A stretch of 64,000 nucleotides of DNA. Source: Halichondria panicea. Its lineage: Eukaryota > Porifera > Demospongiae > Suberitida > Halichondriidae. The notes under the pieces are model-generated. The model ran no database searches. It was not told the origin of the DNA and was given only the letters and a program-made list of their open reading frames with translations. Made by a program: the position numbers and the translations under genes. Every line of letters starts with the position of its first letter. The stretch's first letter is position 1. Positions 27,989 to 63,934 of the stretch are shown here, piece after piece. The stretch spans positions 4,242,990-4,306,989 of the forward strand of contig NC_087387.1 in the NCBI RefSeq assembly GCF_963675165.1, read 5' to 3'.

Positions 27989-28338
27989 CTCATATTTGAG
28001 ATTGATCAGCTCCCTTTGAGAGGAGTAGCTCAACAATGGAGGAGTGATCGTTCATTGTAGCGTACATCAATGGAGTACCTCCAACCTAAAATAATAATTA
28101 TACATGATTGTAGCGAATGAAAACGTGTTCACACACTTACATTAACATGTGCAAACCTTATTTCTCAAGGCAGCCAATTTTTTTTATTTTTATTTTGAAT
28201 TTAAGAAGCTACGTAGAGGCAATTGCAAATATAACTCACATTGTCCTGACAGTTGACTTGAGCCCCTACAGAAACCAGTAGTTCTACAACACTTAGATGG
28301 CCTTCTTGAGAAGCTATCTCGAGAGGAGTGAAGCCATA
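27989..28338 (-). CDS. Ankyrin exons, class A (28240-28338) and terminal class D (27989-28085), copy 2
   Basis: 28240-28338 encodes YGFTPLEIASQEGHLSVVEL ending GAQVNCQDN. 27989-28085 is 97 nt and encodes VGGTPLMYATMNDHSSIVEL, stopping after GADQSQI (TGA). The 2-nt shortfall against the 99-nt pattern is shared with 8082-8178, so it predates the block duplication. It may be the normal end of the ankyrin gene. Confidence 0.8.
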
Positions 28339-28412
28339 CTGAAAAAAGATTGGAAAAAATATTCACAGACAAATTTTCAATAGAAATTTGTACATCACAC
28401 GTACTTAGTGTT

Positions 28413-28735
28413 TCCCCCACACGCTAAGTAGGCCTGTGCCAAACATTCAAATTTTTTACCTATTATTCGCACCTATTAATAATTAACACCTATTATTCAA
28501 CATACACAGCAGCGAAAAATAGTACCAAAAATGTAGTTTCAACATTGCATGATTGGACTACAATTAATTTACTGCCGTGTAAAATGTGGGCGTGTTGTGA
28601 GCTACTGCGCATGTGCAATTCAATGAATATCATTAAACTATTTTCACAGTGCCTATTATTTAAAAGACTGCTTATTATTCAAAAAATTATTCTGGAATAT
28701 TACTTTTGGCAAGGCCTAACGCTAAGCCCAGCCCT
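28413..28735. repeat. Insertion specific to block copy 2
   Basis: About 320 bp absent from copy 1. The left end CTAAGTAGGCCT and right end AAGGCCTAACGCTAAG are roughly inverted. It contains repeated ACCTATTATTC motifs. There is no coding signal. Confidence 0.4.
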
Positions 28736-29262
28736 ATTTGAATCTGTATACATGTAAGTCTTGTGTGTGCAGTACGTGTTGATAAGCTAATTGAATTTGG
28801 GGAAATTCCTGCATGCATGGGCACTGACTGTACAGATTCTCTCTATTGTGATCACACAATATTGTGCCACGTACTGCATGTGTTGACAACATTGAGAAGT
28901 CAAGCTGTGTGCATGCCAAATAAATAGCCCTCCTTCGCAGGCCCTCTTTTTTCTGTTCATTTTCTAAGGGATTAATAAAGAAAGAAGGAAGAGACAAAGA
29001 AAAAGGAGAGCCTGCATGCCTTGCTAAGCCCAAGTGAAAGTGGGCAGTCACTAGCAGGGCGGAGCCTGGCAAGGCCAAAAGCTACAGCATGCCTACGCAT
29101 ATTGCAGACTTTCACATAAAGTACACTAGAATCAAGTCTGGAGACATCGTAGACGAGGGCTTAATTACCTATTACCTACAGTAAATAATAGTTAGACACT
29201 GTTTACTTTGGGCTTCTACTTTGGGCTTCTACATCACGTAGAAACTTCCTAAACAGTGCACA

Positions 29263-29657
29263 TACCGTATATGCTCGATCAGAGGCCGCTCTTGTATAAA
29301 GGCCGCACTCAAATAGTAGCCTCCCTTGCTAGCAAAATGAAACATTTAGTAGCCGCTCTCAAATAAGCCTCAGTGAACTTTGACTCTAGCATTTCTGCAC
29401 CTGGCAGCCAAAAAAATTATTACTAGCAGCTAGCTACATGTACGTAGCTATGAGTAGCAGCTTGTTAGTGCTTCACAAAGACTTTCTCATGGCAGAGTTC
29501 AAGTTTATGCAGGTGAAAACAACTTTTGATGACAAACTAAATTATCTGGAGCTAATAAACGCCGCTCTTGAACAGTGGCCCCTCCTGAATTGTAGCCTCC
29601 TCTTCCAGCAAAATGAAACATTTAGTAGCCGCGGCTCCTGATCAAGCATATACGGTA
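29263..29657. mobile_element. MITE with TACCGTATATGCT ends
   Basis: The left end TACCGTATATGCTCGATCAG is mirrored by the right end CTGATCAAGCATATACGGTA. GGCCGC and AGTAGCC motifs recur on both arms. It lies in a part of the block not present in copy 1. Confidence 0.75.
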
Positions 29658-29978
29658 AGCATAATATTATTAGATCATAGCAACCATGAATCTCTATAGC
29701 CAATTATCATATTTGCTACATGATTGTCTGAGTGAAGTACTGTATAGCGGGACATTTTCGCTCAGCAGGAATGTTTTATGAGTTCTAATAATTATATTCG
29801 CGTTTCTATGCCAGGAAACCACACCCACCAATAACTTTGTAGGTGAAATACCGCTGCGTGGGAGTTTAATTATTGCATGCAGTTATAATTTTCGCATCTT
29901 CTGTCTACCCTCGAAAAACGCGAAATTTTGCACCTCACGAAAATGTTCTGCTGTACGGTACATGATTGTCAAAGTGAA

Positions 29979-30426
29979 GTACAGTGGAACCTCTATTAAC
30001 GACCACCTCCGAAGAGCAACAGCACGCTATATAACGGCCAAGAACTCAGGTCCGGACTAAAATGACTTCAATGTAAAGCAACCTCTCTTGGGAGCGGCCA
30101 CCTCTCATACAAACTTTGAAAAGGCTGTAGAGACAAGCAACAGCTAGGTTTTCACGATTGTGCAAAATAATGCTATATAAATTATCTCAACAATAATTTT
30201 CTGCTAATTCTGGGTGTGGCTGTCCATTCTGGGAAGTTATTTTCCATTGCTAAAGCTGATCAGGGGACTAGAAAGCTGCTCGTTATACGGAGGTGGCCGC
30301 TCCTGAAAGGTTGCTTTACATATTGAAGTGTCATTGTTCAATCCGGACATGTGCTCTTGGTTATTATATAGCGTGTGGTTGCTCTTGGGAGGTGGTTCGC
30401 TAATGGAGGTTCCATTTTGCACTGTA
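29979..30426. mobile_element. pogo/Tigger-like MITE
   Basis: The ends are TACAGTGGAACCTCTATTAA and, inverted, AATGGAGGTTCCA...CACTGTA, with GACCACCTCCGAAGAGCAAC inside the left arm. A close relative is 45056-45372. Confidence 0.75.
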
Positions 30427-30938
30427 CCTTTAATTACTCAACCAGATTTCAGGGAAAAAACTTTTCTGAGTTCAGAACGGACCCCACTTGACTACAGAAT
30501 AGATATTATTACAGCAGTAGAGGTATATAGTCCACTCCAGTCTTTCATACTCCTCTACTGACTAAAGGTTTCACGAAGTCTACTTTATACTTAGATCATA
30601 AAATTATGATAAATTCGTTCTAAGTACTGTGTGGGAGGAGAGTTATTGCCGTGTACTCTCGCCCGCACTCATAAAATGTTGTCTATACGTCAGTGGGGGA
30701 GTCAGTGAGGGATCACGCGACTTATCAAGGCAGGTTCTCCTTTTTCTTTGTCGCTTCCTTCTAAATTATTTGTTCCTCCAATTTCTCCTCTTAATAACAG
30801 AAAAAGGAGGGCCTGCCAAGGAGGCTAACAATAACAAACATAGCAAGAATTTTATCTACTGCCCTCTCTCCCTAGCCACAGTCTGGCCACCCTGTTTGAA
30901 CTTTACACTGGGGGAAACACTGCACGAAATCAACCCAC

Positions 30939-31588
30939 TGTGTTTGGCAGGTCAACAATGGCTCCAGCAGTGATCAAATGGTGAGCGACATCTTTGTGTC
31001 CCTTGAAGCTGGCTGTCCAGAGAGCAGTCTCTCCGTCCTATATAATAGTATATGTATACGTTGTAATGCAATCACGTATCATCTCACTAGCACATGCAGT
31101 GTGTGACAAATATGCACTTGTTAGGCACAGCGGTGTTGTTGTAAGGTGAATTTATACTCTCAGATATTTTTATTAACGAGACAACATTGTGTCTAGCATA
31201 TGAAATCAGAGAGGTGGCTGCTGTATATGATTATCACAAACTAAAGGACACTCCAAAGTGTCTAGAGCACTTACTTGTTCTTGTACATGAACATCTGCTC
31301 CACTGTCAATGAGTTGTTGCACTATCTTGAGATGTCCTTTACGACTAGCACAGTAGAGAGCAGTAGCACCTTCCTGTTAACCAGTGCAGTGTATTGGCAA
31401 TTATACAGACAGAGGGACACAGTGAACGATAATTATGATTATACGCAATTAAGTAAATTATGCAAATATGCCAAAATACCAACACTCACATTGTCCTGAC
31501 TGTTGACTTGCGCCCCCACAAAAACCAGAGCCAACACAACACTGAGATGGCCTTCTTGAGCAGCTGCCATGAGAGGAGTGGTACCATT
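30939..31588 (-). CDS. Ankyrin exons A (31490-31588), C (31275-31373), B (30939-31037)
   Basis: Three 99-nt phase-0 exons with AG/GT borders. A reads NGTTPLMAAAQEGHLSVV and ends GAQVNSQDN. C reads EGATALYCASRKGHLKIVQQ and ends GADVHVQEQ. B reads DGETALWTASFKGHKDVAHH and ends AIVDLPNT. The introns are about 116 and 237 nt. They are intact equivalents of the decayed exons 10209-11053. Confidence 0.85.
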
Positions 31589-31908
31589 CTGTAAGAAAGG
31601 GGAAGCTGTTATTATAATAGCAGTTCTTTATCTAGGACTGGAACCACTGTAGCTTTTAGCAATTTACAATTTTCATTTATATCTTTGCATGGAAAGATCT
31701 AATCTGGAAAATGACTGCACAACTGAATTCTAATTGCTATTCTTGTGCTATGACATTTGAATGCAGGGATATACAACATAGTCATTTTAAAACTAAGCGT
31801 GACTGACTATAAGTATAGGATATTATTAACCATTGTACTGACAGGTAGTGGAGGATATTATGGATGCATATACCCTCCGAGTATAGGTGTGGTATATCTG
31901 GCAGCACT

Positions 31909-32228
31909 ATAAAAGGACCTCCCACTAGCAACATTCAACCCACGATGCAGACTACAAAACGAGCAAGCCAGATTTTGCAGCCATCAAAGAGCTAGTTGAG
32001 CAACACGTTGACTCCTACAGATACTCAAGAGCCTCCTTGGTCCAAGAGTTGGCCATTCGACGTCCTTTACTGGAGTTGCAAGCTCTTCTTGTGTCTAAGC
32101 CACGCCCATGGACCGACCCATGGCTTAGCCATCTTGTTGTAGAGCAGCTTCTGTGTTTCTGCTGTTGCTTTGAAGTCTTAGTACCATCAAGCATGGCTCC
32201 TTTCTCTTGCTACTTTCCAAAAAACTAA
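31909..32228 (+). other. Unrecognised open frame after a TATA-like box
   Basis: ACTATAAAAGG at about 31909-31919 is followed by a frame open from about 31937 to a TAA ending at 32228. It includes FAAIKELVEQHVDSYRYS and ELAIRRPLLELQALL, which look protein-like. The frame has no ATG at its start and ends in low-complexity sequence. It could be an exon (AG acceptor at about 31936), a transposon relic or chance. Confidence 0.25.
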
Positions 32229-32785
32229 AAAAAAAACCTTGAAAACTGTGCATGCCTGGGGGGCTGTATGTTATTTCTATATACAAAATTAGCTGTTGAC
32301 CAATGAGTGGTGACGTAAGTGTGGTATAATTATACATATTAAGACTGGTAACAACAAACTATATTCTGGAGCCAACAGCGGGGAGGGAGGAGGTGTACAT
32401 GGCCAACTTAATAAATAAATGTTGGGCAAATTAGTATAGAAGTCAAGAAGTTGAAATGTGCTGTCCTAATGAAAAAAACTGTGCACATGCAAAGTAACGT
32501 GACATCCTGTCAATTGCACGTAAGCAACTCGCAATTGATAACGTTAGCGTACTTCCAACGTATATGTTTGCACTACTTGTGTTACTTTGAATGCATATAT
32601 AATTACGTACATGTATGCATGTTAGTTAGCTTTCTGGCTGTATGGGACATGTACATATTACGTAAAATGTGTACGCTACAAGAGATAAGTCAGTGACACC
32701 ATTCTGAAAAAGGGGTACCAGGATGATCAGACAGTGTTCCAGTGACACTTTCTATAATTATGTCATACAGCTGATATGAACCCAC

Positions 32786-32884
32786 CGTGTTTGGTAGGTC
32801 AACAATGGCTCCAGCAGCGATCAAATGGTGAGCAACATCTGTCTGTCCATTGAAGCTGGCTGCCCAGAAAGCTGTCTCTCCGTC
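32786..32884 (-). CDS. Ankyrin class B exon
   Basis: 99 nt, phase 0, reading DGETAFWAASFNGQTDVAHH and ending AIVDLPNT before GTGGGTT. Its closest relative is 55756-55854, within a wider repeated block. No adjacent A or C exon is seen within 1 kb. Confidence 0.8.
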
Positions 32885-32933
32885 CTATTTATAGAACGTA
32901 TATACGTAAATGATCATTACAGCATCATTTTAT

Positions 32934-37154: not shown

Positions 37155-37362
37155 CCTCTACAAAGGATTTTGCGGAGTTTATTTTCGTAGTGGTCTGAGT
37201 TCCAGCCTTTTGGCGTATGCGCACATCAACATGCAGCTGTATACCTCCACACCGTTAGCCTCTACAAAGGATTTTGCGGAGTTTATTTTCGTAGTGGTCT
37301 GAGTTCCAGCCTTTTGGCGTATGCGCACATCAACATGCAGCTGTATACCTCCACACCGTTAG
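37155..37362. repeat. Perfect-looking 104-bp tandem duplication
   Basis: Units 37155-37258 and 37259-37362 are identical as read, each beginning CCTCTACAAAGGATTTTGCG. The near-identity indicates a very recent event or an assembly artefact. Confidence 0.9.
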
Positions 37363-37718
37363 CCTCGAATCCAGGCCTAGCCTAATAGAATCAGTGAGGC
37401 ACTATGTCCTCCACCTCTAGCAGAATGTTTGCTGTGCATAGCCATAGGCACTGCAGTTTTGTGTGTAATGGTGAACTTATACAGCCTCGTTTCCAACAGA
37501 AGGAAAGTCAATTTTTCTCTTCCATTCTATTAATTAAAAACGAGGCTAAACAAGTAACACACCGACTGAATTTGAATAGTCACTGAATTAAAGAGGCAAA
37601 CTTTGACAATAATTTATCGTGTCTATATAGTTTTATAATTATAGCTGTACATCACCGATACATTTTCTCCACGCAATTATTTTAAACTACATGTACAATG
37701 CACAAACCAATTGCTTAC

Positions 37719-37817
37719 TTTATTCTGACTGTTGACTTGAGCCCCCTCAGAAACCAGTAGTTCCACAATACTGAGATGACCTTCTTGAGCAGCTGCCATG
37801 AGAGGAGTGAAACCACC
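37719..37817 (-). CDS. Ankyrin class A exon
   Basis: 99 nt, phase 0, reading GGFTPLMAAAQEGHLSIVEL and ending GAQVNSQNK before GTAAGC. Normal acceptor CAG. Confidence 0.8.
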
Positions 37818-38622: not shown

Positions 38623-38629
38623 AGCGTTT

Positions 38630-39635: not shown

Positions 39636-39737
39636 AATAATAGGCCAAATTTACCCGCTTGACTATAAATGGAATTGGTGGCACAAACTTATTCGTAGTC
39701 TGATTGAAAAGGTACATAGAGGCAACTAATGACTCAC

Positions 39738-39836
39738 ATTGTTTTGACTGTTAACTTGAGCCCCAAAAGAAACCAGCAGTTCTACAACACTGAGATGGCC
39801 TTCTTGAGCAGCTGCCATAAGAAGGATGTGACCCTC
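39738..39836 (-). CDS. Ankyrin class A' exon
   Basis: 99 nt, phase 0, reading EGHILLMAAAQEGHLSVVEL and ending GAQVNSQNN, with a normal GTGAGTC donor. Exon and flanks to about 40070 match 11184-11560, a separate duplication. Confidence 0.8.
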
Positions 39837-40247: not shown

Positions 40248-40538
40248 ATTATTCTGACTGTTGACTAGAGCACCCACAGAAAGAAGTAGTTCCACAACAC
40301 TGAGATGGCCTTCTTGAGCAGCTGCCATGAGGGAAGTACTAGTGACATCATCCTGAAAAAAGAATTCACATGAAAGACAGTTTTTCAGCAAACCACATGT
40401 GCATTGTGTATTATAATTATATGTAGGAAATCAACCCACCGTCTCTGGTAGGTAAGTAATGGCCCCACCAGTTACCAAATAGAGAGCGACATCTTTGTGT
40501 CCATTGAAGCTGGCTATCGAGAAAGCAGTCTCTCCATC
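40248..40538 (-). CDS. Ankyrin exons B (40440-40538) and long class A (40248-40352)
   Basis: B is 99 nt, reads DGETAFSIASFNGHKDVALY and ends ITYLPET. The A-type exon is 105 nt, reads DDVTSTSLMAAAQEGHLSVV and ends GALVNSQNN. It is two codons longer than the standard 33 near its start but still in frame. The intron between them is 87 nt. Confidence 0.8.
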
Positions 40539-42586: not shown

Positions 42587-43056
42587 ATTGTTCTGACTGT
42601 TCACCTGAGCCCCCTTAGAAACCAGTAGTTCCACAACACTGAGATGACCTTTTTGAGAAGCTTTCATAAGAGGGTTAGTGCCATTCTGAAAAGGACGTAA
42701 AATAATTATAGATATCTGCGTATATATGAAATGAACCCACTGTGTTTGGTAGGTCAACAATGGCTCCAGCAGTAATTAAATGGTGAGCGACATCTTTGTG
42801 TCCCTCGAAGCTGGATAACCAGAGAGCAGTCTTTCCATCCTAATTTTTGAGTGGGTAAAAGTGTTCAAAATATGTAGCTAACACAGGCAGTGGGTTGTTG
42901 GATAAGTGTCTCATATTTAAGTTATTGGCACATTATTATGTTGAAATAACAGCCTACCTGTTTCCGTATATTAACACCTGCTCCACTGTCAATAAGTTGC
43001 TGCACTATCTTGAGATGTCCTTTACCACTAGCCAAGTAGAGAGCAGTAGAACCTTT
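42587..43056 (-). CDS. Ankyrin cassette C (42958-43056), B (42741-42839), A (42587-42685)
   Basis: A full C-B-A cassette of three 99-nt phase-0 exons separated by introns of 118 and 55 nt. C reads KGSTALYLASGKGHLKIVQQ ending GAGVNIRKQ. B reads DGKTALWLSSFEGHKDVAHH ending IVDLPNT. A reads NGTNPLMKASQKGHLSVVEL ending GAQVNSQNN. Acceptors are AG and donors GTAGG, GTGGG and GTGAG. Confidence 0.85.
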
Positions 43057-43290
43057 CTGTTAACCAGTACAAAAATTCAGTTGGTAATAATACGGAAAGA
43101 CAGAGTGGAAGACATAAAAATAAGACTAAATTGACAATAACATTATCAAGCGGAGGCATCCGTGCATGTGTATTAATCATGGTGGTCCTTTGAACATGCA
43201 TGGGTGCTGACTTGCTAAAATCAATCTTTAAATTGCCCAAAGGACGAAAACTTAACATTATCTCGTTAACTATACTATGCACAAACAAAT

Positions 43291-43370
43291 TGAGCCCCCT
43301 TAGAAACAAGTAGTTCCACAACACTGAGATGGTCTTTTTGAGAAGCTATCATAAGAGGGTTAGTGCCATT
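43291..43370 (-). pseudogene. Truncated ankyrin class A exon
   Basis: It keeps NGTNPLMIASQKDHLSVVEL through the line before GAQVNSQ, but the last about 19 bases and the donor site are deleted, so it cannot splice normally. Confidence 0.65.
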
Positions 43371-46016: not shown

Positions 46017-46294
46017 TTTATTCTGGCTGTTGACTTGAGCCCTCACAGAAACCAGTAGTTCCACAACACTGAGATGGCCTTCTTGAGCAGCTACCATGAG
46101 AGGAGTGAAACCATTCTGTGAGAAAAGAATATCACGGACAGTGTTTCACTATAATTATGGTACATGGATATTCAGTTAATAGGATATGAACCCACCGTCT
46201 TTGGTAGGTCAACAATGGCTCCAGCAGTGATCAAATGGTGAGCGACATCTTTGTGTCCATTGAAGCTGGCTGCCCAGAGAGCAGTCTCTCCGTC
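46017..46294 (-). CDS. Ankyrin exons B (46196-46294) and A (46017-46115)
   Basis: Both are 99 nt, phase 0, with an 80-nt intron between. B reads DGETALWAASFNGHKDVAHH ending IVDLPKT. A reads NGFTPLMVAAQEGHLSVVEL ending RAQVNSQNK. A decayed class C exon appears upstream, split by the retrotransposon at 46749. Confidence 0.85.
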
Positions 46295-46781: not shown

Positions 46782-47965
46782 TTCGGCAAAGCCAGGATAC
46801 AATAAAAATAGCAGAAGCTAATAAGTTAGTACCCTAAAAAAAAAATATATATATATATAGTGTAACTACCTATTCAAAGAATGCTAAGTACTACAGGGTC
46901 ATTAAGCATAGATTTAAATAATTTTAAGGGAGTACAAGTGCTGATTATAAGTTCACGATTTGCCATAATCCTGTTCCACAGTTCAATGGTCCTTGGGAAA
47001 AAGGAGTTATTATGGACCGATGTTCTGCATGATACTGGAGTCAGAGAAAGATTGTTAACATATCTTGTATTGTATGTTAATTGTCTCTTCTTAGGTGTGT
47101 CCTCATAGTAACTTATATTATACATAATTTTGAATAAATGGTGCAGACTGGCCAATGCCCTTCTCTGACCCAGCGTTGGTAGTTCTGCTCTTTTCAAAAG
47201 TTCCAAATAGCTGATAGAGTAATCCCACTGTTTTAGGCAAACCTTTAATGCAAACTTCTGGACTTTTTCCATATCCTTGATAATGCATTTTAAGTGTGGG
47301 TTCCAAACAATTGAAGCATACTCTAGTTTTGGTCTAATGAAAGATTTGTATAATTTCAGCATAACAGAAGGGGGAGAATGAGTTGCGAAGATTCTGTGTA
47401 GCAGTCCAACAAGTTTTCTCGATTTTTTACAAAGTGCCTTAGTGTGGGAATGCCAAGAAAGATCTGATGAAAATTGTATTCCTAGATATTTGAACGTCTC
47501 CACATGCTCCAGGAAAAAGCCATTGACTGAAAATGTGGGTGGCTCGATGGACCTACTTCTCTTGTTTGATATTAACATCACTTTACATTTTGATGCGTTG
47601 AATTGAAGGTGTTTGCCAGACATGAAAGCAGCAACACTGTTTATGTCTTCCTGAAGTGTATCGTAGTCTTTAATCGATTTAATGACTCTATAAATAGCCA
47701 TGTCATCTGCAAACATATTTAGATGGGTGTCACTTGAGACTACATCAGAGACATTATTAATGTACATGATAAAGAGCAATGGGCCTAAGACTGATCCTTG
47801 AGGCACACCTGACATAGCATGGAGAGTGGTAGACGCTTGCCCATTCACAACTACAAATTGCTCTCTCTTCAATAGGTAACTTTTAAGCCACTTCAAGAGG
47901 TAGCTGTTTATTTCAAGTAAGTGAAGAAGTCGAAGTAGTGGTAAATGTGGTACTGTCTTTACGCA
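46749..47965 (-). mobile_element. Non-LTR retrotransposon (CR1/jockey-like), 5'-truncated
   Basis: A 340-residue open frame (47896-46874 from the first ATG, open further upstream to about 47960) encodes the C-terminal half of a reverse transcriptase. VPHLPLL starts the fragment, GVPQGSVLGPLLF is at residues 30-42, the catalytic FADD box is at 62-65, FKYLGI at 135-140, and a thumb/C-terminal region follows to the stop. The endonuclease and the first RT blocks are missing, as usual for 5'-truncated copies. A run of about 28 T at 46749-46776 is the poly-A tail on the minus strand. The frame is undamaged, so the insertion is young. No convincing target-site duplication was found. Confidence 0.85.
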
Positions 47966-48648: not shown

Positions 48649-48683
48649 ATTGTTCTGACTGTTCATTTGAGCCCCCACAGAAC
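48649..48683 (-). pseudogene. Ankyrin class A exon stump
   Basis: Only the 3' end of the exon (the VGAQMNSQNN-type end plus the GTGAGTC donor) remains. The rest is replaced by the family B fragment. Confidence 0.55.
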
Positions 48684-48945
48684 CATGTGGGGATGAGCGC
48701 GCATGCGCATTGCATCCACAGGAACAATTAAGAGTGTGTCCAAAGAAATCAAGTTCACAATACCTACTATAGCTAGCAGTTTTAACAGATCTTTTCTGAC
48801 TTTTGTGTTATAAAATTATAATGAGATTGTGACTGTTAGTTTTCGTCACATTGCAACCGTTGAGCAGTTACAGCTGGAATACACACACATAGTCAGCTTT
48901 ACTGCATCCCTCGTGCGGCTACGCCTCAAGGCATAATTAATTATT
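48684..48945 (-). repeat. Repeat family B fragment truncating an ankyrin exon
   Basis: Reverse family B sequence (ATGTGGGGATGAGCGCGCAT... to CGTGCGGCTACGCCTCAAGG). It begins directly after about 35 bp of a class A ankyrin exon (48649-48683: donor end, AGCCCCCACAG). Confidence 0.6.
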
Positions 48946-49540: not shown

Positions 49541-49544
49541 CTGT

Positions 49545-50000: not shown

Positions 50001-50039
50001 CATTATGCGGGTGAACAAGTATAATGAAGCAAATGAAAA

Positions 50040-52826: not shown

Positions 52827-53749
52827 TAATTAGGATATGTTTACATTTTTACTGCATTTTGGGGTAACTGTCTGTATTAAGAAAATCTACGAAGTACCCG
52901 TAATAATTATGACCTAATCACCACTCACACTGTAACGTTTGACACCGAAGATCAAGACAATAGTACATGAGAGAATATACGAACATGCAACCAGAAAACA
53001 TTTGAAGAAAAAAAATTCGTAATCTAATTCAGAGGGCACACTCTCCTACTGGAAGAGGGACGCCTTTGTTACAAAAAAAAAAGATGTCCCACCCACACAA
53101 CATAACCGAAGAACTGCCAACTCTCTATAGCCTAAGAAAGAGGTACATATACCCCCATGCATGGCGGAACAAAACAAAGAGAGGAGGAAAAGCCAGAACA
53201 CATGCACAACTGCCACACATGAAAATCAATACTATATACACATGGCCCAAGTCAATCATAATTAATTTTTATACTGCCCATGCCCGAAACATAACGAGGC
53301 GTTTATTATAGCCCTAGCTAATTTAACTAGAGCACTAAAGTGCTAACCCTCGGCTGCATGACATAAATAGATGTATACAAACCATGCAGAGGAGTGTTCA
53401 GTTACACACAATAAAAAAGCAACAAACTACAATTCTACTTTTAATAGAGACCTGTAAAAAGGATCACCTCAGCTGCAAATGTGTAGCTCTACCTAGAATA
53501 AAGGTTGCGTGTAGAGCTAATTACACGGTAATTACACAGAAAGACAGAGTGAAAGACACACTAAATCGACAATAATATATTATCAAGCGGAGGCATGTAT
53601 CCGTGCATGCGTAGTGGTCCTTTGAACATGCATGCATGAGTGCTGACATGCTAAAATCCATCTTTTAAATTGTCCGAGGGACGAAAACTTAACATTTCCA
53701 AAATTTCTGACAATGAACTGCAATGCATGCACTAACAAATTATACTCAC

Positions 53750-53999
53750 TTTATTTTGACTGTTGAGTTGAGCTCCCTTAGAAACCAGTAGTTCCACAAC
53801 ACTGAGATGGCCTTTTTGAGAAGCTATCATAAGAGGGTTAGTACCATTCTGAAAAAAAGACGTAAATATAGATAACTGCGTATATAGGAAATCAACCCAC
53901 TTTGTCTGGTAGGTCAACAATGGCTCCAGCAGTGATCAAATGGTGAGCGACATCTTTGAGTCCAATGGAGCTGGCTATCCAGAGAGCTGTCTTTCCATC
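53750..53999 (-). CDS. Ankyrin exons B (53901-53999) and A (53750-53848)
   Basis: Both are 99 nt, phase 0, with a 52-nt intron. B reads DGKTALWIASSIGLKDVAHH ending IVDLPDK. A reads NGTNPLMIASQKGHLSVVEL ending GAQLNSQNK. Paralogous with 62084-62335. Confidence 0.85.
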
Positions 54000-54236
54000 C
54001 TATTAGTAGTAAACATAAAATTAATAATTATAGTAACAATCACACATGTATACAGGATAGAATTTTTGAGGCGTGCCATTTGATCAAATGGTGTGAAATT
54101 TATTCAATGAAACGCTTTTAGAGGCACTTTCACGAAAACTTCAAAAATTTCGTGCTATACCATATAGCAGTCTGTCCATACTGCGTATAATTATATACAA
54201 TGTATCCCCTGAAGCAAAGACAAACTCAAGAGAGTC

Positions 54237-55066
54237 ATTATGCCTCGAGGCGTAGCCGCACGAGGGATACGGTAAAGCTGACTGTGTGTGTGTCTGTGTA
54301 TCTGTGTGTCTGTGTGTCTGTTCCAGCTGTAACTGCTCAACGGTTGCAATGCGACGAAAACTAACAGCTTGTATAGGCTTCTAGCCACGTTCTCTTGGAT
54401 TTTGATTCGTGGATTAGCAAACTAAAGCTTCTTTCTCGAGTTATGGCTAGTTTGACTCACATTGAAGGCTGTTGCAGTCTCTTCAGAATCTTTCATAGCA
54501 TCATCTGTCCGCACATACTTTCTATTCAACATATGAGTTAGCCTTGCACTAAAGCGCTAGCTTTTTGTTAGCTACAAGACTCAGAAAATATCTGTTAAAA
54601 CAGCTAGCTAGCAGTAGCCATTGATCTGTTTGGACACACCCTTTATTATTCCTGTGGATGTAATGCGCATGCGCGCTCATTCCCCACGTGTGAGAAACCA
54701 AGATCCAGATCCAGATCCTCCTGGCAGAATCATCTTTGTCTTGAGGGCCTGGTAAGCCACAAAACACTACCATATAACAATATAGATAACAATATGCATG
54801 TACACAGGTCTGATATTATATACACTGAACTACAGATCCTGGAAGAATCAATTTTCTTCTTTCTTGAGGTCCTGGTAAGCCACATAATACAATAAATAAC
54901 AACAATAGATGCATGTAAATAAGTCTTTTCTTCTCAGTGACTTTATATAGGTAAGCTAACTTTAATATAAAATTCATTATAGAAACTAATATAACACTCT
55001 AATACTTTTGAGCAAAAGCAAAAACATGGCGAGAGGCATTAGCACAGCGCCAGCTTGAACACTAGT
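54237..55066 (+). mobile_element. Repeat family B element, full-length copy
   Basis: From ATTATGCCTCGAGGCGTAGC, through a TGTG/TCTGTG microsatellite, to CGCCAGCTTGAACACTAG. It is very close to 5181-6024. A perfect 26-bp palindrome (55068-55093) abuts its right end. Confidence 0.7.
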
Positions 55067-55117
55067 TGACAGATGGTTTTAAAACCATCTGTCTATAGTT
55101 TGAAAAAGAGGCTATAA

Positions 55118-55580
55118 CTAGAGCACTGAAGTGCTAACCCTCGGCTGTTCACATGAATAATAAAGATCTTTGTTGCCCAGTGAGTGGGCGGATCAAAGCA
55201 ATCCAGTGCTCAGTATATGGCATGTTGCATCACTGCCATGGCTACCATATATTGCACTGCATTATATGCACTTGCACTGTGTGTAAATTTCTTTCAGAAA
55301 TATCCGTTTGGGACTTATGCCCCAACATCCCACCCAATACTCAGTTGGTCCCTTTTATAGGCTACTACCTTTACAACTACTAGTGGGAAGAAAACCTAAA
55401 AAATTTACTATGGAATTCAGCAAAACTAATGAATACACTAAATTCCTTCAAAACACATGTCTTTTATTACGATTTATATGACCAGTCAGACGAGTTTAAC
55501 GTCATTGGGCAACAAGTTAGTTATTGCCGGCGCCCTCGTGCAACATGCCATATATTGCACTCTGGCTGGGCAATAACTAA
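55118..55580. repeat. Repeat with ATATTGCACT motifs
   Basis: It begins with a CCTCGGGT-element left end (GAGCACTGAAGTGC...). From about 55165 to 55580 it is bracketed by GTTGCCCAGTGAGTGG and, inverted, GGCTGGGCAATAACTAA, with ATATATTGCACT inside both arms. It is similar in style to 34322-35167. Confidence 0.5.
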
Positions 55581-55593
55581 TTACATGTTAGCT

Positions 55594-56745
55594 AGCTTTC
55601 TGGATGTATGGGACATGTACATATATATTACGTAAAATGTGTAAGCTACATGAGAGAAGTCAGTGACACCATCCTGAAAAAGGGGTACCAGGATGATCAG
55701 ACAGTGTTCCAGTGACACTTTCTATAATTATGTCATACAGCTGATATGAACCCACCGTGTTTGGTAGGTCAACAATGGCTCCAGCAGTGATCAAATGGTG
55801 AGCAACATCTGTCCGTCCTTTGAAGCTGGCTGCCCAGAAAGCTGTCTCTCCGGCCTATTTATAGAACGTATATACGTATATGATCATTACAGCATCATTT
55901 CACACAATTAATTATAACTGCATGGAACAAAGTGTATTTCCCAGCTCATAATGCAGTGAAGTAGTGGCAGCACGATGGAATGTTTGTCTAAAGTCCAGTA
56001 CATCTCTTGCTCTTACTGTATATAATTATATGGTAATGTAGTTTGAGGTGCTCTAAGACACAGGTTATAGGCCGGTATTAGAAAGTGGAACACAGGTATT
56101 TTTCTCTGTCTTGTGTGATGGAAGATATGGCACTTAAAGGACTTGGGACCAGACCTGTTATGGCTTGTAGAAAGCACTGACATCCCTTTTTGATGTACTA
56201 CCTCTCAACAAATACCACCACTCTATACGTAATAATTATTAATAATACAATGCAGTGTTTATCAGTCTCTTAATGTTCATGTTTTCTGATGCTTTGATGT
56301 TCTGTATCACTTTTTCGCTCTTTTGCATTAAGGCCGAGGGTCAGGAAGTTGTCAATGTTCATTTAGCAGTCATATTATTTTAATGGCATTAGTGTTGGGA
56401 GTGCGTGCTTTGAGCAAAGTATAGCAAATGTATAGTATAATACACTGCACGGTGCCATAACCATTTTAAGCCTGAAGACTCTCGTAAGTCATTTTGACCT
56501 CAAAACGATTGTCACACTTTTCTTCTGCTACAGCGGTGCAGACTGTCTGATACTCTTCTGATACACTAGGCAGGAGGCAGGCCTTCATACAGAACAAATT
56601 GACAGGGGAGGGCAAAATCAACATTTCAGAAAAATGGGGGAGCGAGGCTATTATCCATGTACGGCCATCTAGGGGGGGGTCTGGGGGCATGCCCTCCTAG
56701 GAAATGTTTGTGCTTAGACTGTTGTATACCGTATCTAAGTAGCTT
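55594..56745. repeat. Segmental duplicate of 32620-36000, shorter form
   Basis: Aligns with 32620-32930, 34006-34321 and 35168-35640 without the two large insertions at 32934-34005 and 34322-35167. It contains the class B ankyrin exon 55756-55854. Confidence 0.7.
55756..55854 (-). CDS. Ankyrin class B exon
   Basis: 99 nt, phase 0, reading AGETAFWAASFKGRTDVAHH and ending IVDLPNT. The usual first residue Asp is Ala (GCC). Confidence 0.8.
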
Positions 56746-56765
56746 CGTAAAGAACTCATTATTAT

Positions 56766-57215
56766 TGGGGCGAGCGAAGCGAGTCCCTTAGTTAGTCATG
56801 CATGTGGTCCGGGTGGTGCATGTATGTATGTCGTGGACTGGCAGACCAGCATGGACCGTCATACGATATTTGCTTTTGGGACTGGTGATCCTTACCAATT
56901 TCTACGTGAGTCGATAGAAGAGAATAGTCTAGCGACAACGAAACAAGAAAGATTAGCAAGAAGGAGGGAGCGAGAGTGACACGCAAGATCCCAAGAACAG
57001 CTGAAAAAAGGGAAAGTAGACTTGCTAGACGCAGAGAAAGAAGAAGTGAAGGTAACCAAGTCAGAGGGTTCTGCTACCATAAGTATTTGCTTGTTGTAGA
57101 AACTCGACAGGCAGAAATAGATGCCATTAGAGTCACCCAAACATTATTAAATGAAGCCAGCATTATTGTTCATTACAGAGACTCCAGAGGCCAGACAAGC
57201 ACGTCACTTCTACCT
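56766..57215 (+). mobile_element. Helitron-like relic, 5' end (forward)
   Basis: The leader GGGCGAGCGAAGCGAGTCCC is followed by an ATG at 56851 opening MDRHTIFAFGTGDPYQFLRE and ending in basic RLARRRERE before a stop. After a frameshift it resumes as RTAEKRESRLARRRERRSE up to a GTAAC donor near 57051. The Arg-rich RLARRRER repeats and the inverted partner at 58612-59213, which has a Helitron-type domain, support the call. It is degenerate. Confidence 0.5.
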
Positions 57216-57334
57216 AGCTAGCTGCTACCGTAGATACCATGGCAGTGTATCATTATGTGTGGGAGTGATATACCATCATGTGGGAATGTAGTACATAAAC
57301 TCTATACGTACATGTCAATGGGATATGAACTCAC

Positions 57335-58095
57335 ATTGTTCTGCTTGTTGACTTGAGCCCCCATAGAAACTAGTAGTTCCACAACACTGAGATGGCCTTC
57401 TTGAGCAGCTACCATGAGAGGAGTGGTACCATTCTGTGAGAAGGGGTATACCAAGGTTATCTAAACTCTATACGTATATTATCAGACAGTGTTCACTCTA
57501 TACGTACATACATACAGAGTAGGATATGAACCCACCGTCATTGGTAGGTCAACAATGGCTCCAGCAGTGATCAAATGGCGAGCGACATCTTTGTGTCCAT
57601 TAAAGCTGGCTTCTAAGAGAGCAGCCCGTCCATCCTATTAATAGTACGTAAAGTCACGTTTTAACATCACATATCGACAAAATTAATAACTGACAGACAT
57701 TCAGTGTGTAACCAACAATTTGTAGGTACTGAAATGAAACAAATCGTGCCTAGTATGAAAAAGAATAGCTATATTATAATTATAATGAAAGCACCGATGT
57801 ATCAAAGCTATACATAACATAAAGCTACTAGCTATCGCTAACACACACAGGTATATTTTACTGCTGTTAATCACAGGGAAATTCTTCAAAGAGTGAGAAA
57901 TAATTGACCTATGGTTGATGCTAAAAAGGATGCCAACAGTACAAAGTCTAAAATTAATAGTTGCTGCATCAGTACAAAAGTGTCTAGAGCACTTACTTGT
58001 TCTTGTACATGAACATCTGCTCCACTGTCAATGAGTTGCTGCACTATCTTGAGATGTCCTTCATGACTAGCCAAGTGGAGAGCAGTAGCACCTTT
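57335..58095 (-). CDS. Ankyrin cassette C (57997-58095), B (57536-57634), A (57335-57433)
   Basis: A complete C-B-A cassette with introns of 362 and 102 nt; all exons are 99 nt and phase 0. C reads KGATALHLASHEGHLKIVQQ ending GADVHVQEQ. B reads DGRAALLEASFNGHKDVARH ending IVDLPMT. A reads NGTTPLMVAAQEGHLSVVEL ending GAQVNKQNN. Confidence 0.85.
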
Positions 58096-58611
58096 CTGTT
58101 AATCAGTGCAGTGTACTAGTTATAGTTGGCAATTATATGGAGAGACAAACTAATACCCTATATAAAGAGGTGCAACATTTCGCGTTTTTTGAGGGCAGGC
58201 AGAGCAGTTAACTAAATTAAAACTGGGGATAAACTCCTACGCACTGGCATGCAAGCTATTGGTGGGTGTGGTTTCTTGGCATAGAAACACGAATATTAAA
58301 AGCCACGCTATGGGTAAATAGCGAAAATGTGCACTCGCGAGATTTTTCGCTACACATGCAGCATGTAACAAATAGTTTGTATATTATTTAAATAGTTGTA
58401 TATTATTCGTATATTATACAGTTTATAATAATTATTATAGGCACTGAAAACATCATTAATCTCGGTACTCAAAGAAACATAATGATGCTATACCCTTGCT
58501 AGCTACACGTAAAAACAACATATATACCCATTACCGCAACGCTCCTTGGAGGGTGAGCCAGACCATGACTGATGACTGTTATTATAGGGTTAGGCATCCC
58601 CTTTAATTAAC
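58096..58611. other. Gene-free stretch
   Basis: AT-rich sequence with fragments of TTTTCGC-type repeat ends. No exon recognised. Confidence 0.35.
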
Positions 58612-59213
58612 TAGAGGAATGCAACCCCACTGGTTAAAAAAACTAGGGTGACGCAAGCGCCATGGGGCAAGCAACGCATCCAACTCTGCTGAAAGATATT
58701 GTGCAAATGACACCACATCTTGTGGCAGGTTGATGACATGGCCTGCATATTCATATTGTCCAAGTGGTAATCCATAGATTGACATTATTGGCACGACTGC
58801 AGATATAAACAGCATCTTGGATTGAATAGTAGATTGTTCGAATAGAGGCATGTCGGGATTCACTCCGTATATGCCTATGCCTGCATGTATTGCTTCAAGC
58901 GTGCCTGTGTGGCCTCTAGAGTCTCCGTAAGCGTAATGAACATTTGGCCACTTTCTGCTGGCTTGTGCACTTTCTACACAACATTTATTTATGTTAGGCA
59001 AACACCTGCAGAACCGTTGGAGTCAGTTACCTGCTCCTGTGTGCCCTGTATCTTTCTCTGGGTCTAGCAATCCTCCTTTCCCTCTTTTTGAGGATCCTCC
59101 TTATCGCTAGTTTTGTCGCTATTCATATCTTTATTGAGCTAAAGTTATTGACTCACGTAGAAATTGGTAAAGGATCACGAGTCACAAAAGCAAATATCGT
59201 ATGCCGGTCCATG
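58612..59213 (-). mobile_element. Helitron-like relic (DUF6570-type region)
   Basis: On the minus strand a leader with MDRHTIFAF (near 59211) and a basic RERRIARPRERYRAHRSR segment with a GTAAC donor are followed by an exon. That exon reads NVHYAYGDSRGHTGTLEAIH, MLFISAVVPIMSIYGLPLGQ and YEYAGHVINLPQDVVSF, then LSAELDALL. The pattern, an 'I-S-PIMSIY' line followed by 'GHVINLPQDV-SF...ELD', is that of the DUF6570 region preceding the helicase-like domain in Helitron Rep/helicase proteins. No Rep or helicase motifs remain. Confidence 0.6.
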
Positions 59214-59216
59214 TAG

Positions 59217-62200
59217 GGGCAGGGGCATAGCAAGCTGGGGGCCATATTTAGACTCACTGCATGTGTCAGTTTGGAGGTGGTGTTGCTCGAAGTGGCTTGG
59301 AAGCCAAGTCTATACATGGCGAGGAGTCTTTGTGTTACGTCTAATTTTTGTTGTTGTTGAGAAGAGTGTGGAAGCCAGGGTGAGATATACTTCAGGAAAG
59401 GCTTTACTCAGATAGCTGGTATAGCAAAGGCAGAGACCTCAGCACCAGGTAGTAAGCTAGCTGAGAGCACATGCCCATATAAGATGGGTGAGGTCTTTAT
59501 GTAATGATAGTAGGCAGGGCAGCATGGGAGGTACATCGATTATTAACTACCTCACGCTTTACGTAGAATTTCATCCCAACAAAAAGAGACACATGCATGC
59601 ATAATTATAATGACGGCACCGCGGGTGCTGATGCCTTGATGGATGTGTCAAAGCTACATAACATAAATCTACTAGCGATTGCTAATACACACAAATATCT
59701 TTGCTGCATAAAACCACAGGGAAATTCAAAGAATGGGAAATGATGGACCATCCCCTCAGCTACACAGTTAAGATGCTTTATACGTTGTAAAAAGCATGTA
59801 TCCAAAAAGTTAAGGGAGTATAGAATTCCTTCTACAGTACAAACGAGTTTTTAGCTGACATAATTATTGGTAGACATGAAAGCAGCACATACTATATGAA
59901 GGCTGAGTCGACTCCATCTCAATATCATGACCGTCTTGAACAATGTAAGCCAATTTGGAATTCATGTGAATCTCCTTTTACCCCGTCTTCAAGATGGACC
60001 TCGGTTTTTTCTTCGCTACAAGTCTTCTGTTGTGTGCCAGAATATGCACAAAGATGTTCGAGTATCTGTTGGATTACGGTCAACCTCAGAAATCTTCACT
60101 GGGTGTGGTTTAACTACCATAAACTCTGCATTCCTCATGAACTCCCTTGCCTTGAGGGTGCATGTACTTTATATTAGATCTACCCAGCCAAAAAGAAGCT
60201 AGACAGTTGTTGGCAAGGGCATGACAGCTAGATGGGTGGGGCTCCCTAAACACCAGGAAGGCTGAAAAATGGGTGGGGCTCACTGTTTGGACATTGACAA
60301 GTTGGTTCGTAGTAGAGCTATAAGCTTTGCACTGGCGACAAGCTATACCACAAGCTTGCCATTTCTTTTCAATGCTTTTGAGACAAGGTGAGGTAGCTTA
60401 GGTAGTGATAAATCTTATTCTTCTGTTGTCCCACGTAATTATGGTAAACATGGGACACAATGAGCAATACACATGTGATTCTAGCTGACTAAACTGGAAA
60501 TCATCTGGAATAAATTTGCTCTCATGCATTGGCAGTAGCAACCCTGAATGGTGATTCCTAGAGTGGTATAATGGATCATCCAAGCAACCCAATATCACTT
60601 CCTTTCATTGGTTGGCTTGCCTTCTGGGCGGGGACGAAAATGTGGTGTTGGAAAAAGAAGTAGAAAACGATTAGATAAGAAAACACCCGAGTTGCACTTT
60701 GAAGATCAGCTTTTAGTACTGCACCTATTAGAGGAACCATCTCGGGGTCCTCCTCACAGACACACCACAGTCTTCTACTGCAATCGGAACCCAACAAACC
60801 ATATCAAATGTGTTGGGCTCACCTTAATCCCCCAGTAGTCCACTACAAAACACGCATTATTTCGAAGAAGTTATGGTATCTATTAATATACAACTAGGGA
60901 ATGGTGTGAAAAGATTGACAAAAGTTAATGACTATGATTAATTGCTGCGCATGCTCTCATAAAACAGTGCAGCCTTGCAGCTCTTTCCCCACTTTTGCAG
61001 CTAGCGTTCTTGTGCATGCAGAGCTAACTATACAAAGCAACACTATGAACAAGTTTTGCAACGCACCAGGCATAATTATCAGTATTACTTTCTGCTACTA
61101 TTATAATGTTTATGTATACATGTATGTATGTGCTAAACATGATGTATAGAATGATAAAGATAATTAGGATATGTTTACATTTTTACTGCATTTTGGGGTA
61201 ACTGTCTGTATTAAGAAAATCTACGAAGTACCCGTAATAATTATGACCTAATCACCACTCACACTGTAACGTTTGACACCAAAGATCAAGACAATAGTAC
61301 ATGAGAGAATATACGAACATGCAACCAGAAAACATTTGAAGAAAAAAAATTCGTAATCTAATTCAGAGGGCACACTCTCCTACTGGAAGAGGGACGCCTT
61401 TGTTACAAAAAAAAAAGATGTCCCACCCACACAACATAACCGAAGAACTGCCAACTCTCTATAGCCTAAGAAAGAGGTACATATACCCCCATGCATGGCG
61501 GAACAAAACAAGGAGAGGAGGAAAAGCCAGAACACATGCACAACTGCCACAAATGAAAATCAATACTATATACACATGGCCCAAGTCAATCATAATATTA
61601 TACTGCCCATGCCCGAAACATATCGAGGCGTTTATTATAGCCCCAGTTAATTTAACTAGAGCACTAAAGTGCTAACCCTCGGCTGCATGACATAAATAGA
61701 TGTATAGAAACCATGCAGAGGAGTGTTCAGTTACACACAATAAAGAAGCAACAAACTACAATTCTACTTTTAATAGAGACCGGTAAAGGATCCCCTCAGC
61801 TGCAAATGTGTAGCTCTACCTAGAATAAAGGTCGCGTGTAGAGCTAATTACACAGTAATTACACAGAAAGACAGAGTGAAAGACACATTAAATCGACAAT
61901 AATATTATCAAGCGGAGGCATGCATCCGTGCATGCGTAGTGGTCCTTTGAACATGCATGCATGAGTGCTGACATGCTAAAATCCATCTTTTAAATTGCCC
62001 GAGGGACGAAAACTTAACATTCCCAAAATTTCTGACAATGTAATTGTTGAACTGCAATGCACGCACTAACAAATTATACTCACTTTATTTTGACTGTTGA
62101 GTTGAGATCCCTTAGAAACCAGTAGTTCCACAACACTGAGATGGCCTACTTGAGAAGCTATCATAAGAGGGTTAGTACCGTTCTGAAAAAAGAGCGTACA

Positions 62201-62340
62201 ATATAGATAATGCGTATAATATAGGAATCAACCCACTGTGTCTGGTAGGTCAACAATGGCTCTAGCAGTGATCAAATGGTGAGCGACATCTTTGTGTCCA
62301 TTGAAGCTGGCTGCCCAGAGAGCAGTCTCTCCGTCCTATT
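59217..62340 (+). repeat. Segmental duplication block, copy 2
   Basis: Paralogue of 50280-54060, starting GGCATAGCAAGCTGGGGGCC. It includes the repeated GCACCGCGGGTGC box (about 59614), the preserved unrecognised frame 59927-60202, and the ankyrin pair 62084-62335. It lacks the 608-bp insertion found at 52219. Confidence 0.75.
62084..62335 (-). CDS. Ankyrin exons B (62237-62335) and A (62084-62182)
   Basis: Both are 99 nt, phase 0, with a 54-nt intron. B reads DGETALWAASFNGHKDVAHH ending IVDLPDT. A reads NGTNPLMIASQVGHLSVVEL ending GSQLNSQNK. Confidence 0.85.
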
Positions 62341-62530
62341 AATAAGTAATATACTGTACATGCATGAGAGAGCGAACACTTCTGCTGTTTTCGAGGGTTA
62401 ATTAGCAATCCTCCACGAAATACTTAGCTAACGGATAGACGGGACATCATTGCATGCATGACCAAATAGCGCAAATTTACGCTTTTAGAGACACTTACAC
62501 ACAAAAACCCCGAAAAAATCGTGCTACGTA

Positions 62531-62952
62531 TACCGTATTTACTTGATTAAACGCCATCCTTGAATAAACGCCCATCTCGTTTAAAAGCCCAGGGTAAAAG
62601 CTCTGTCTTTGTCAATAAACGCCCATATATGGGGCGTGGCACTGTGGGTGGAGCTGAAATAGCACATGGAACCCCAGTTGCAAGCATGGCAGCATAGAAT
62701 AATAATACTTCTTATGATGCATCGACGGCAGAGAGAGAGATACCGACACAGAGGGCACTCCTATGACACTTAAATTTAAGCTGAGAAATAGATTTAAGCT
62801 GAGACAGCAGCCCAAGAAAAGAGCACAATAAATGCTGCTGTGCAAGAGTTTTGGAGTAGACATAACAATAAACGCCCTCCTCGTTTAAACGCCCCCTCTA
62901 AAGACTTTGATCTGAAATAAACGCCCGGGCGTTTAATCAAGTAAATACAGTA
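62531..62952. mobile_element. MITE of the AAACGCC family, copy 2
   Basis: TACCGTATTTACTTGATTAA at the left, inverted as GTTTAATCAAGTAAATACAG at the right, with AAACGCCC motifs on both arms. Same family as 20166-20570. Confidence 0.75.
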
Positions 62953-63093
62953 TATGCACGGTATAATTATCATCCCTACAAAATTAAGCAACACAGTCAT
63001 GCATAATTATGCAGCGTGTGACAATAGTTGTTTGCAGGCACTGCAGTATTGTCTAATGGTGAACATAATTACGACACCTATACTCAGTTCTCA

Positions 63094-63491
63094 ACTAGAG
63101 CACTGAAGTGCTAACCCTCGGCTGTTGACATGAATAAATAAAACCAGAGGAGTGTAGAAGCAACAAACTACAATTCTACTTTTGATAGAGACCGTTAAAG
63201 GATTACTTCAGCTGCAAATTGTAGATCTCATTGCACCTCGAGTAAAGGTCGCGTCTTCAAGCTTCTTAGATTTTTAGCTTTTGCTCGCTTTTATACGACA
63301 ACGAAGTTTTAATATCGAAATTTGCCACAATTGAAACTAACATTGTGTGGAGGCTATCCATGCTGTAAACGCATGCAGTGCTATGGCAGCCAAGTGAATG
63401 AGTATAGACTAGCTCACATGTCACACACAAACAAGCAAACAAACAAATCAACGGACTACTATACCCATGGCCGCTCAAGCGCCTCGGGTAA
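63094..63491. mobile_element. CCTCGGGT element, shorter copy
   Basis: From CTAGAGCACTGAAGTGC to GCGCCTCGGGTAATA, with (CAAA)n near the right end. Same family as 52219-52826, without the inner palindromic part. Confidence 0.6.
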
Positions 63492-63605
63492 TAAAGGAAT
63501 TCAATGACCAGATTTTATGACACTGGTTTAAAGAAGCCGGTATGCACGTACCTACACTCTAAAAAGGACGTAAAAATTTTATAAGTAAATAACAAATCAA
63601 CCCAC

Positions 63606-63934
63606 CGTGTTTGGTAGGTCAACAATGGCTCCAGCAGTCATCAAATGTTGAGCGACATCTTTGTGTCCATAGAAGCTGGCTACCAAGAGAGCAGTCATTC
63701 CATCCTAATGTTTGAGTGGGTAGGATTGTTTTACAAAAAACAAAATTGTGTATCTAACACACAGGCAGTGTTGTTGAATGAGTGTCTCATCTATTTATGT
63801 TATTGGCACATCATTATGTTGAAATAACAGCCTACCTGTGTCTGTATATTAACACCTGCTCCACTGTCAATGAGTTGCTGCACTATCTTGAGATGTCCTT
63901 TACCACTAGCCGAGTGGAGAGCAGTAGAACCTTG
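63606..63934 (-). CDS. Ankyrin exons C (63836-63934) and B (63606-63704)
   Basis: Both are 99 nt, phase 0, with a 131-nt intron. C reads QGSTALHSASGKGHLKIVQQ ending GAGVNIQTQ. B reads DGMTALLVASFYGHKDVAQH ending IVDLPNT. The array evidently continues beyond the window. Confidence 0.85.

What the first reader, a model, noticed from the sequence alone, without database searches (positions are those of the whole stretch)
27989..63934. Ankyrin gene built from interchangeable 99-nt phase-0 exon cassettes (C-B-A)
Seen: about 20 intact exons on one strand, nearly all exactly 99 nt, each one 33-residue ankyrin repeat starting at the DG-x-TPL register, all phase 0-0. They fall in three classes: A (EGHLSVVELLVS-GAQVNSQ), B (GHKDVAHHLITAGAIVDLP) and C (GHLKIVQQLIDSGADV). 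They recur in the order C-B-A at 42587-43056 and 57335-58095, and partly elsewhere, with introns as short as 52-118 nt. Inference: the array grew by tandem duplication of an exon triplet. Because any exon can be skipped, lost or gained in frame, the locus could yield many protein variants by alternative splicing or by copy-number differences between individuals. This is my best candidate for an undescribed system.
Basis: partly seen in the sequence, partly recalled or inferred. Interest (0 to 1): 0.8.

Follow-up and report, generated by a model that had tools for sequence, protein, structure and literature searches.

The report
Ankyrin receptor genes with exon-per-repeat arrays
The window holds most of one gene of a small cluster, each predicted to join a membrane leader and a death-domain-like head to a long ladder of ankyrin repeats coded one per exon, whose likely binding surface changes most; this looks like an inherited recognition-receptor family, while the idea of many splice variants is untested.

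Summary
On the minus strand, 24 of 26 candidate array exons of one gene are usable and phase 0 (23 of 99 nt, one of 105 nt), in three classes. The array runs 27 kb beyond the window (43 usable of 45 candidates). Four such 5' ends and six 3' ends lie in a 0.5-Mb cluster on one contig. Capped genome searches found close B and C matches only there.

The C-B-A cassette is not supported as growth unit: after collapsing copied blocks, five triplets remain and C-B and B-A distances do not correlate. Better units are a B-A exon pair and large blocks: an 11-exon, ~14-kb block is repeated with 11 mismatches in 12.2 kb aligned.

Amino-acid changes concentrate at repeat positions 1, 3, 8, 11, 12 and 32; the six positions randomised in designed ankyrin binders (recalled) are enriched (p=0.004).

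Best reading: a germline-diversified, probably immune, receptor family. Combinatorial splicing is neither supported nor excluded; no transcript data were available.

The parts
63836..63934 (-). array exon, class C, 99 nt (gene d)
   Evidence: AG/GT borders, open
63606..63704 (-). array exon, class B
62237..62335 (-). array exon, class B
62084..62182 (-). array exon, class A
57997..58095 (-). array exon, class C
57536..57634 (-). array exon, class B
57335..57433 (-). array exon, class A
55756..55854 (-). array exon, class B
53901..53999 (-). array exon, class B
53750..53848 (-). array exon, class A
48649..48747 (-). remnant of a class A exon (10 bits), not usable
46196..46294 (-). array exon, class B
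46017..46115 (-). array exon, class A
43272..43370 (-). broken class A exon (stop, no donor)
42958..43056 (-). array exon, class C
42741..42839 (-). array exon, class B
42587..42685 (-). array exon, class A
40440..40538 (-). array exon, class B
40248..40352 (-). array exon, class A, 105 nt
   Evidence: acceptor 6 nt upstream, in frame
39738..39836 (-). array exon, class A
37719..37817 (-). array exon, class A
32786..32884 (-). array exon, class B
31490..31588 (-). array exon, class A
31275..31373 (-). array exon, class C
30939..31037 (-). array exon, class B
28240..28338 (-). array exon, class A, next to last
27990..28085 (-). terminal exon: truncated ankyrin repeat with in-frame stop; six copies on the contig
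52948..64000 (-). window part of a ~14-kb block (52948-67269) repeated upstream at 77668-91143 in window numbering; 11 exons each
8083..11291 (-). 3'-end fragment of another copy: terminal exon (8178), A (8473), B with lost donor (10306), broken C (10657), A (11053), A with GC donor (11291)
46874..47896 (-). reverse-transcriptase fragment inside an intron of the array
   Evidence: Pfam RVT_1 E=2.3e-17

Best explanation
The array is the 3' part of one of about four tandem paralogous genes. Shown in sequence: four loci have, in order, a ~140-residue leader with a hydrophobic stretch ending in a 2A-like motif, a death-domain-like exon and a ~210-residue unnamed module; in the three genes read through (a, c, d) a multi-ankyrin exon, the run of single-repeat phase-0 exons and a short terminal repeat with the stop follow. 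Inferred mechanism: the exons are spliced through to one long ankyrin solenoid (43 single-exon repeats in the window's gene) that binds ligands on its finger and inner-helix face; the death-domain-like head passes the signal on; the 2A site lets part of the product lose its membrane leader during translation, giving membrane-bound and cytosolic forms. The repertoire is diversified in the germline: B-A exon pairs and multi-exon blocks are copied or lost without breaking the frame, and changes on the binding face are kept or favoured while the scaffold is conserved. The likeliest role is innate recognition of microbes or self.
For: Anatomy: the 5' exons lie upstream of the window and are conserved in the other loci at 89.6-96.8% nt identity to gene d, except gene c's unnamed module at 79%. 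A spliced model of gene d reads 2,224 aa with no stop.

2A: exact pattern 25 times in the genome against 0 for the reversed pattern, four of them at these loci, in frame in four of four.

Head: a profile of 10 family members hits the PIDD death domain at E=4.5e-5 and FADD at 0.036.

Constraint: 97 of 105 candidate array exons in genes a, c, d are usable; of the other 8, one is a terminal exon and 7 are broken or remnants. Class pN/pS 0.61 (A), 0.80 (B); 5' module dN/dS 0.22-0.82.

Surface variation: 81 of 217 tree-counted amino-acid changes fall on six positions set beforehand (p=0.004), and the classes share the profile (Spearman 0.46-0.48).

Turnover: 11-exon block with 11 mismatches in 12.2 kb; 3' exons nearly identical between paralogues, many 5' ones not.
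Against: No transcript, protein or ligand data. Pfam gives the death-like exon of gene d no hit up to E=0.1; two of three relatives scanned reach Death only below the curated cut-off (0.016, 0.029); the four paralogues alone reach PIDD only at E=0.026; no fold was predicted. In class A, changes at positions 1, 3, 8, 32 do not clearly exceed fourfold synonymous changes (3.0-7.5 per nt against a mean of 4.25 over only 4 codons), so selection for change is supported in B and C only. The prior-set test misses p=0.05 in class A alone (0.059). dN/dS reaches 0.71-0.82 in some pairs. The immune role rests on analogy. The fresh block could be two haplotypes misassembled. Gene b's array and the fragment at 4127644 were not read.
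Confidence: 0.6

Rival explanations
1. Combinatorial splicing locus: cells choose subsets of the symmetric exons, so each gene yields many proteins.
For: 97 of 105 candidate exons in three genes are usable and keep the frame if skipped.
Against: Phase symmetry follows from single-repeat exons and is no sign of skipping. Borders look ordinary by eye (not scored). Several B-A introns are only 51-63 nt. No transcripts were available.
Confidence: 0.15
2. Plain long scaffold protein: arrays grow and shrink neutrally, variation at positions 1, 3, 8 and 32 reflects the weakest structural constraint, and the protein has a structural or housekeeping role.
For: pN/pS below 1 in classes A and B; class A surface changes not clearly above synonymous ones; paralogues keep a near-identical 3' block.
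Against: In B and C, changes at these positions exceed mean fourfold synonymous changes several-fold (2.5-4.5 against 0.62; 1.5-3.0 against 0.17); class C overall pN/pS is 1.56.
Confidence: 0.2
3. Decaying cluster: gene d and its neighbours are pseudogenes broken up by transposons.
For: 7 of 105 array hits are broken or remnants; two of six 3' ends lack an exact 2A-type 5' end; a reverse-transcriptase fragment sits in an intron.
Against: Leader, death-like exon and module are open in four of four loci, and the 2,224-aa model has no stop.
Confidence: 0.08

Closest known systems
Sea urchin NLR proteins with N-terminal 2A-like signal sequences (Roulston et al. 2016, PMC4981915; abstract and passages seen)
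   Same: D(V/I)ExNPGP at or near the N-terminus, following a hydrophobic leader, in an expanded receptor family whose head is a death domain.
   Different: No NACHT or leucine-rich repeats were found in the exons tested here; the binding part is an ankyrin array; the leader is about 140 residues, against 26 reported there. The words ankyrin, Porifera and Amphimedon do not occur in that text.
Expanded NLR families: death-NACHT-LRR genes of the sponge Dysidea avara (PMC12909245, abstract start and passages) and NLR-B30.2 of zebrafish (PMC4852459, passages)
   Same: Large receptor families with a death-type head, or with small repeats on single exons, exon shuffling and selection on the recognition domain.
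   Different: No ATPase domain found here and the repeats are ankyrin. 'Ankyrin' occurs 0 times in the Dysidea text; 2A could not be searched for in it (one search returned an error).
Canonical ankyrins ANK1-3 (PMC5135030, passages)
   Same: Long ankyrin array plus a death domain. Exon borders at repeat borders in ANK1 are recalled, from no call.
   Different: ZU5-ZU5-UPA not found; the death-like exon is N-terminal; genes are clustered. That paper found no repeats joined to that cassette in nine sponge species.
Large natural ankyrin arrays (PMC7314423, passages)
   Same: Long arrays of similar 33-residue repeats, up to about one hundred, are known.
   Different: That survey treats proteins, not exon arrays; this head architecture is not in the passages seen.

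Membership tests
Ankyrin repeat proteins | 33-residue repeat with helix-helix-hairpin signature, in tandem | tested here: met
   Multi-ankyrin exon hits PF12796 at 8.3e-26 and PF00023 at 2e-22; array exons fit the same 33-residue register.
Canonical ankyrins (ANK1-3) | ZU5-ZU5-UPA cassette between repeats and a C-terminal death domain | tested here: not met
   No ZU5/UPA match in the five 5' ORFs of gene d scanned; the death-like exon is N-terminal. Unseen exons in long introns are not excluded.
NLR (NACHT-LRR) receptors | NACHT ATPase followed by leucine-rich repeats | tested here: not met
   No NACHT or LRR match in the same five ORFs; the unnamed module has no Pfam hit up to E=5.
2A-like translational recoding sequences | D(V/I)ExNPGP motif in frame | tested here: met
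   In frame in four of four loci; 25 in the genome, 0 reversed.
2A-like translational recoding sequences | Ribosome skipping and signal-sequence activity | not testable with these tools
   Needs a translation or cell reporter.
Death domain superfamily | Six-helix death fold | tested here: inconclusive
   Profile of 10 relatives hits the PIDD death domain at 4.5e-5; Pfam Death 0.016 and 0.029 in two of three relatives, below cut-off; none for gene d itself; no fold predicted.
Hypervariable alternatively spliced exon arrays (Dscam type, recalled) | Regulated choice among homologous exons in transcripts | not testable with these tools
   Usable exons are frame-symmetric but no transcripts are available.

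The most novel reading that the evidence does not exclude
A two-level receptor system: germline block-copying keeps remaking arrays of single-repeat exons whose binding face is under diversifying selection, regulated splicing then draws different repeat combinations from each gene in each cell, and a 2A leader splits every product between membrane and cytosol: an ankyrin-based counterpart of variable receptor repertoires, probably in an early animal.
Probability: 0.12. Interest if true: 0.88.

Novelty: new variant of a known kind. Interest (0 to 1): 0.55.

Why it matters
If right, this is a receptor family that couples a translational-recoding leader and a death-domain-like head to an ankyrin ladder that can gain or lose repeats exon by exon without losing frame. 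It would give a natural counterpart to designed ankyrin binders, with a readable record of which repeat positions evolve fastest, and a testable case of how animals without antibodies keep recognition genes changing.

Tried and rejected
Triplet (C-B-A) as the growth unit: not supported after collapsing copied blocks, though only five independent triplets remain. Array as a free-standing gene inside the window: rejected, since the array and the 5' exons run on upstream. Canonical ankyrin or NLR identity: not met in the exons scanned. Death domain by Pfam on gene d: no hit; supported only by a wider profile. Unnamed ~210-residue module: no Pfam match but 124 genome matches, so a family of its own here.

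Ankyrin arrays on relatives of the head: 9 kb downstream of the module at one locus on C4 and one on C12 gave no hit above 5 bits with the iterated profile of these exon classes (2 relatives looked at). Structure prediction was not used: its stated rule admits window proteins and loci fetched by other tools, and the wanted head lies in genome-fetch loci; nothing was sent. The species was not identified: no sponge genome note among the 25 of 29 papers listed gives 131.46 Mb; 'an animal, probably a sponge' is inference. Literature: (ankyrin repeat, 99 bp, exon, phase 0) found 0 papers; the listings showed no title or abstract start describing this architecture. That is all I claim about absence in print, for an open-licence library. 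One search was for the designed-ankyrin positions; no passage seen lists them, so that set stays recalled.
Full report
WHAT IS IN THE WINDOW. The window lies at C11:4242990-4306989 of a 131.5-Mb genome in 39 contigs. The other two are a broken A exon at 43370 and a remnant at 48747. The terminal exon at 28085-27990 is a truncated repeat with a stop: TGA in three and TAA in one of the four copies read. It occurs six times on C11, six of eight genome matches.

THE WHOLE LOCUS. With a B-class query, 53 matches have E<1e-6, all at C11:3.85-4.33 Mb on the minus strand; the best elsewhere is 4.7e-6 at 65% identity. With a C-class query, 23 have E<1e-6, all in the same stretch; best elsewhere 3.3e-5. 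Only 150 candidates were scored in each, so these are lower bounds; class A was not searched genome-wide. Four exact 2A-like motifs in this stretch (3930332, 4098249, 4226477, 4350983) mark four 5' ends. I pair them with four of the six terminal exons and name the genes a-d; d is the window's gene. Genes a, c and d were read through. Of gene b only 9 kb at the 5' end was read, so its pairing with the terminal exon at 3953857 is inferred. The terminal exons at 4251078 (window 8178) and 4127644 have no exact 2A motif before the next gene; the first is a short fragment with broken exons, the second was not read.

Upstream of d's array lie, from the start: an exon with a ~142-residue leader, a hydrophobic stretch and GDIELNPGPG; a death-domain-like exon; a ~210-residue module; a linker; and a multi-ankyrin exon ending in phase 0 at a repeat border. 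The start codon is assumed. Leader, death-like exon and module are present and open in four of four loci; linker and multi-ankyrin exon were seen in the three loci read there. Identity to d is 89.6-96.8%, except gene c's module at 79%. A spliced model of d reads 2,224 residues with no stop. In it a 16-nt micro-exon is inferred, and the linker's acceptor is the first of ten in-frame candidates.

HEAD DOMAIN. Pfam gives nothing on d's death-like exon at E up to 0.1. A profile of the four paralogues reaches the PIDD death domain at 0.026. With six more relatives from this genome the match is 4.5e-5, then FADD at 0.036. Two of three relatives scanned hit Pfam Death at 0.016 and 0.029, below the cut-off. 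So I say death-domain-like. It has 150 matches in the genome, the scoring limit. Of the 25 exact 2A motifs, 14 stand before such an exon: the four here, nine of 19 other sites read, one of them a distant relative (C13), and C2:209545, whose domain lies 1 kb on. Three others look like retrotransposon leaders by recall, six are unresolved, and two were not fetched.

ORDER AND GROWTH. Genes a, c and d hold 19, 35 and 43 usable array exons, 97 of 105 candidate hits. Of the eight others, one is gene a's terminal exon and seven are broken or remnants. Over 100 exons of 28 bits or more, B-A occurs 30 times against 16.4 expected and C-B-A 9 times against 2.8. Of 22 B-A pairs under 300 nt apart, most introns start alike (GTGGGTTCAT or close). 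Distances among B and among A exons of these pairs correlate at r=0.36 (p=0.01), and r=0.36 in 18 non-redundant pairs (p=0.03). For C-B-A, all nine correlate strongly (r=0.64-0.84), but five independent ones do not for C-B or B-A (r=-0.48, -0.26), and C-A is 0.58 with p=0.14. The freshest event repeats 52948-67269 at 77668-91143 (window numbering), 11 exons each in the same order, with 11 mismatches in the 12,204-bp aligned part. About 830 bp present in one copy only matches another place at 92% and looks like an insertion. Exons 28338-32884 of d are 0-4% different from their best matches in c and a; many exons further 5' match best within d, largely because of the fresh block, with exceptions such as 37817 and 46115, 2% from exons of c.

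SELECTION. Class-wide pN/pS is 0.61 (A, 35 unique exons), 0.80 (B, 26) and 1.56 (C, 14), from genes a, c, d and the fragment. By changes at first and second codon positions, the leading codons are 3, 24, 8, 1, 32 in A; 3, 8, 1, 32 in B; 11, 32, 3, 1, 30 in C. For the six positions randomised in designed ankyrin libraries (set recalled; PMC8229355 passages say only that such positions lie on the concave surface), pairwise tests give p=0.059, 0.038 and 0.012 for A, B, C, and tree-counted changes give 81 of 217, p=0.004. Positions 8 and 32 are not in that set and are post hoc. Changes per nt at 1, 3, 8, 32 exceed mean fourfold synonymous changes in B (2.5-4.5 against 0.62) and C (1.5-3.0 against 0.17), not clearly in A (3.0-7.5 against 4.25, four codons). 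Pairwise dN/dS of the 5' modules is 0.22-0.82; gene c's death-like exon and most of its module dropped out because the extraction anchors failed or cut short.

READING. The anatomy is that of a receptor: leader with 2A, signalling head, long recognition solenoid. The leader is closest to that of sea urchin NLRs, shown by others to act as signal and recoding element (PMC4981915, abstract and passages). The solenoid is encoded so that repeats can be gained or lost in frame, and the arrays show that this has happened between paralogues and, if the assembly is right, very recently within d. That is a germline change; that it also occurs by splicing is not shown. The immune role is inference from family expansion, head type and surface variation.

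LIMITS.

Noticed in passing
window 702-4766 and 21609-25697 (+): Two copies, 94% identical, of a stretch that holds dynein heavy chain C-terminal coding sequence (Dynein_C E=1.1e-73 tested at 24954-25547); each lies tail-to-tail with a 3' end of the ankyrin family, as if a ~20-22-kb unit had been duplicated together.
   Followed up: partly
window 37155-37366: Two-copy tandem repeat of 104 bp with 100% matches, suggesting a recent event.
   Followed up: no
window 58603-59001 (-): 132-aa ORF inside an array intron that resembles a Helitron helicase by recall; no Pfam match.
   Followed up: no
G000, 25 places listed: 2A-like motifs in front of death-domain-like exons on eight contigs besides C11, hinting at a genome-wide class of 2A-led death-domain genes.
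   Followed up: partly
G000:C12:1.0-1.7 Mb: Ankyrin hits inside single open frames of up to 4,555 aa: a second, intron-poor style of giant ankyrin genes in the same genome.
   Followed up: no
L007, C11:4364130-4366988 (+): Open frame of at least 953 codons (cut by the end of the piece) with a protein kinase domain, upstream of gene d.
   Followed up: no
L046, C4:6785600-6794600: Downstream of a close relative of the head, no exon of these ankyrin classes but several ORFs that look by eye like partial death domains.
   Followed up: no
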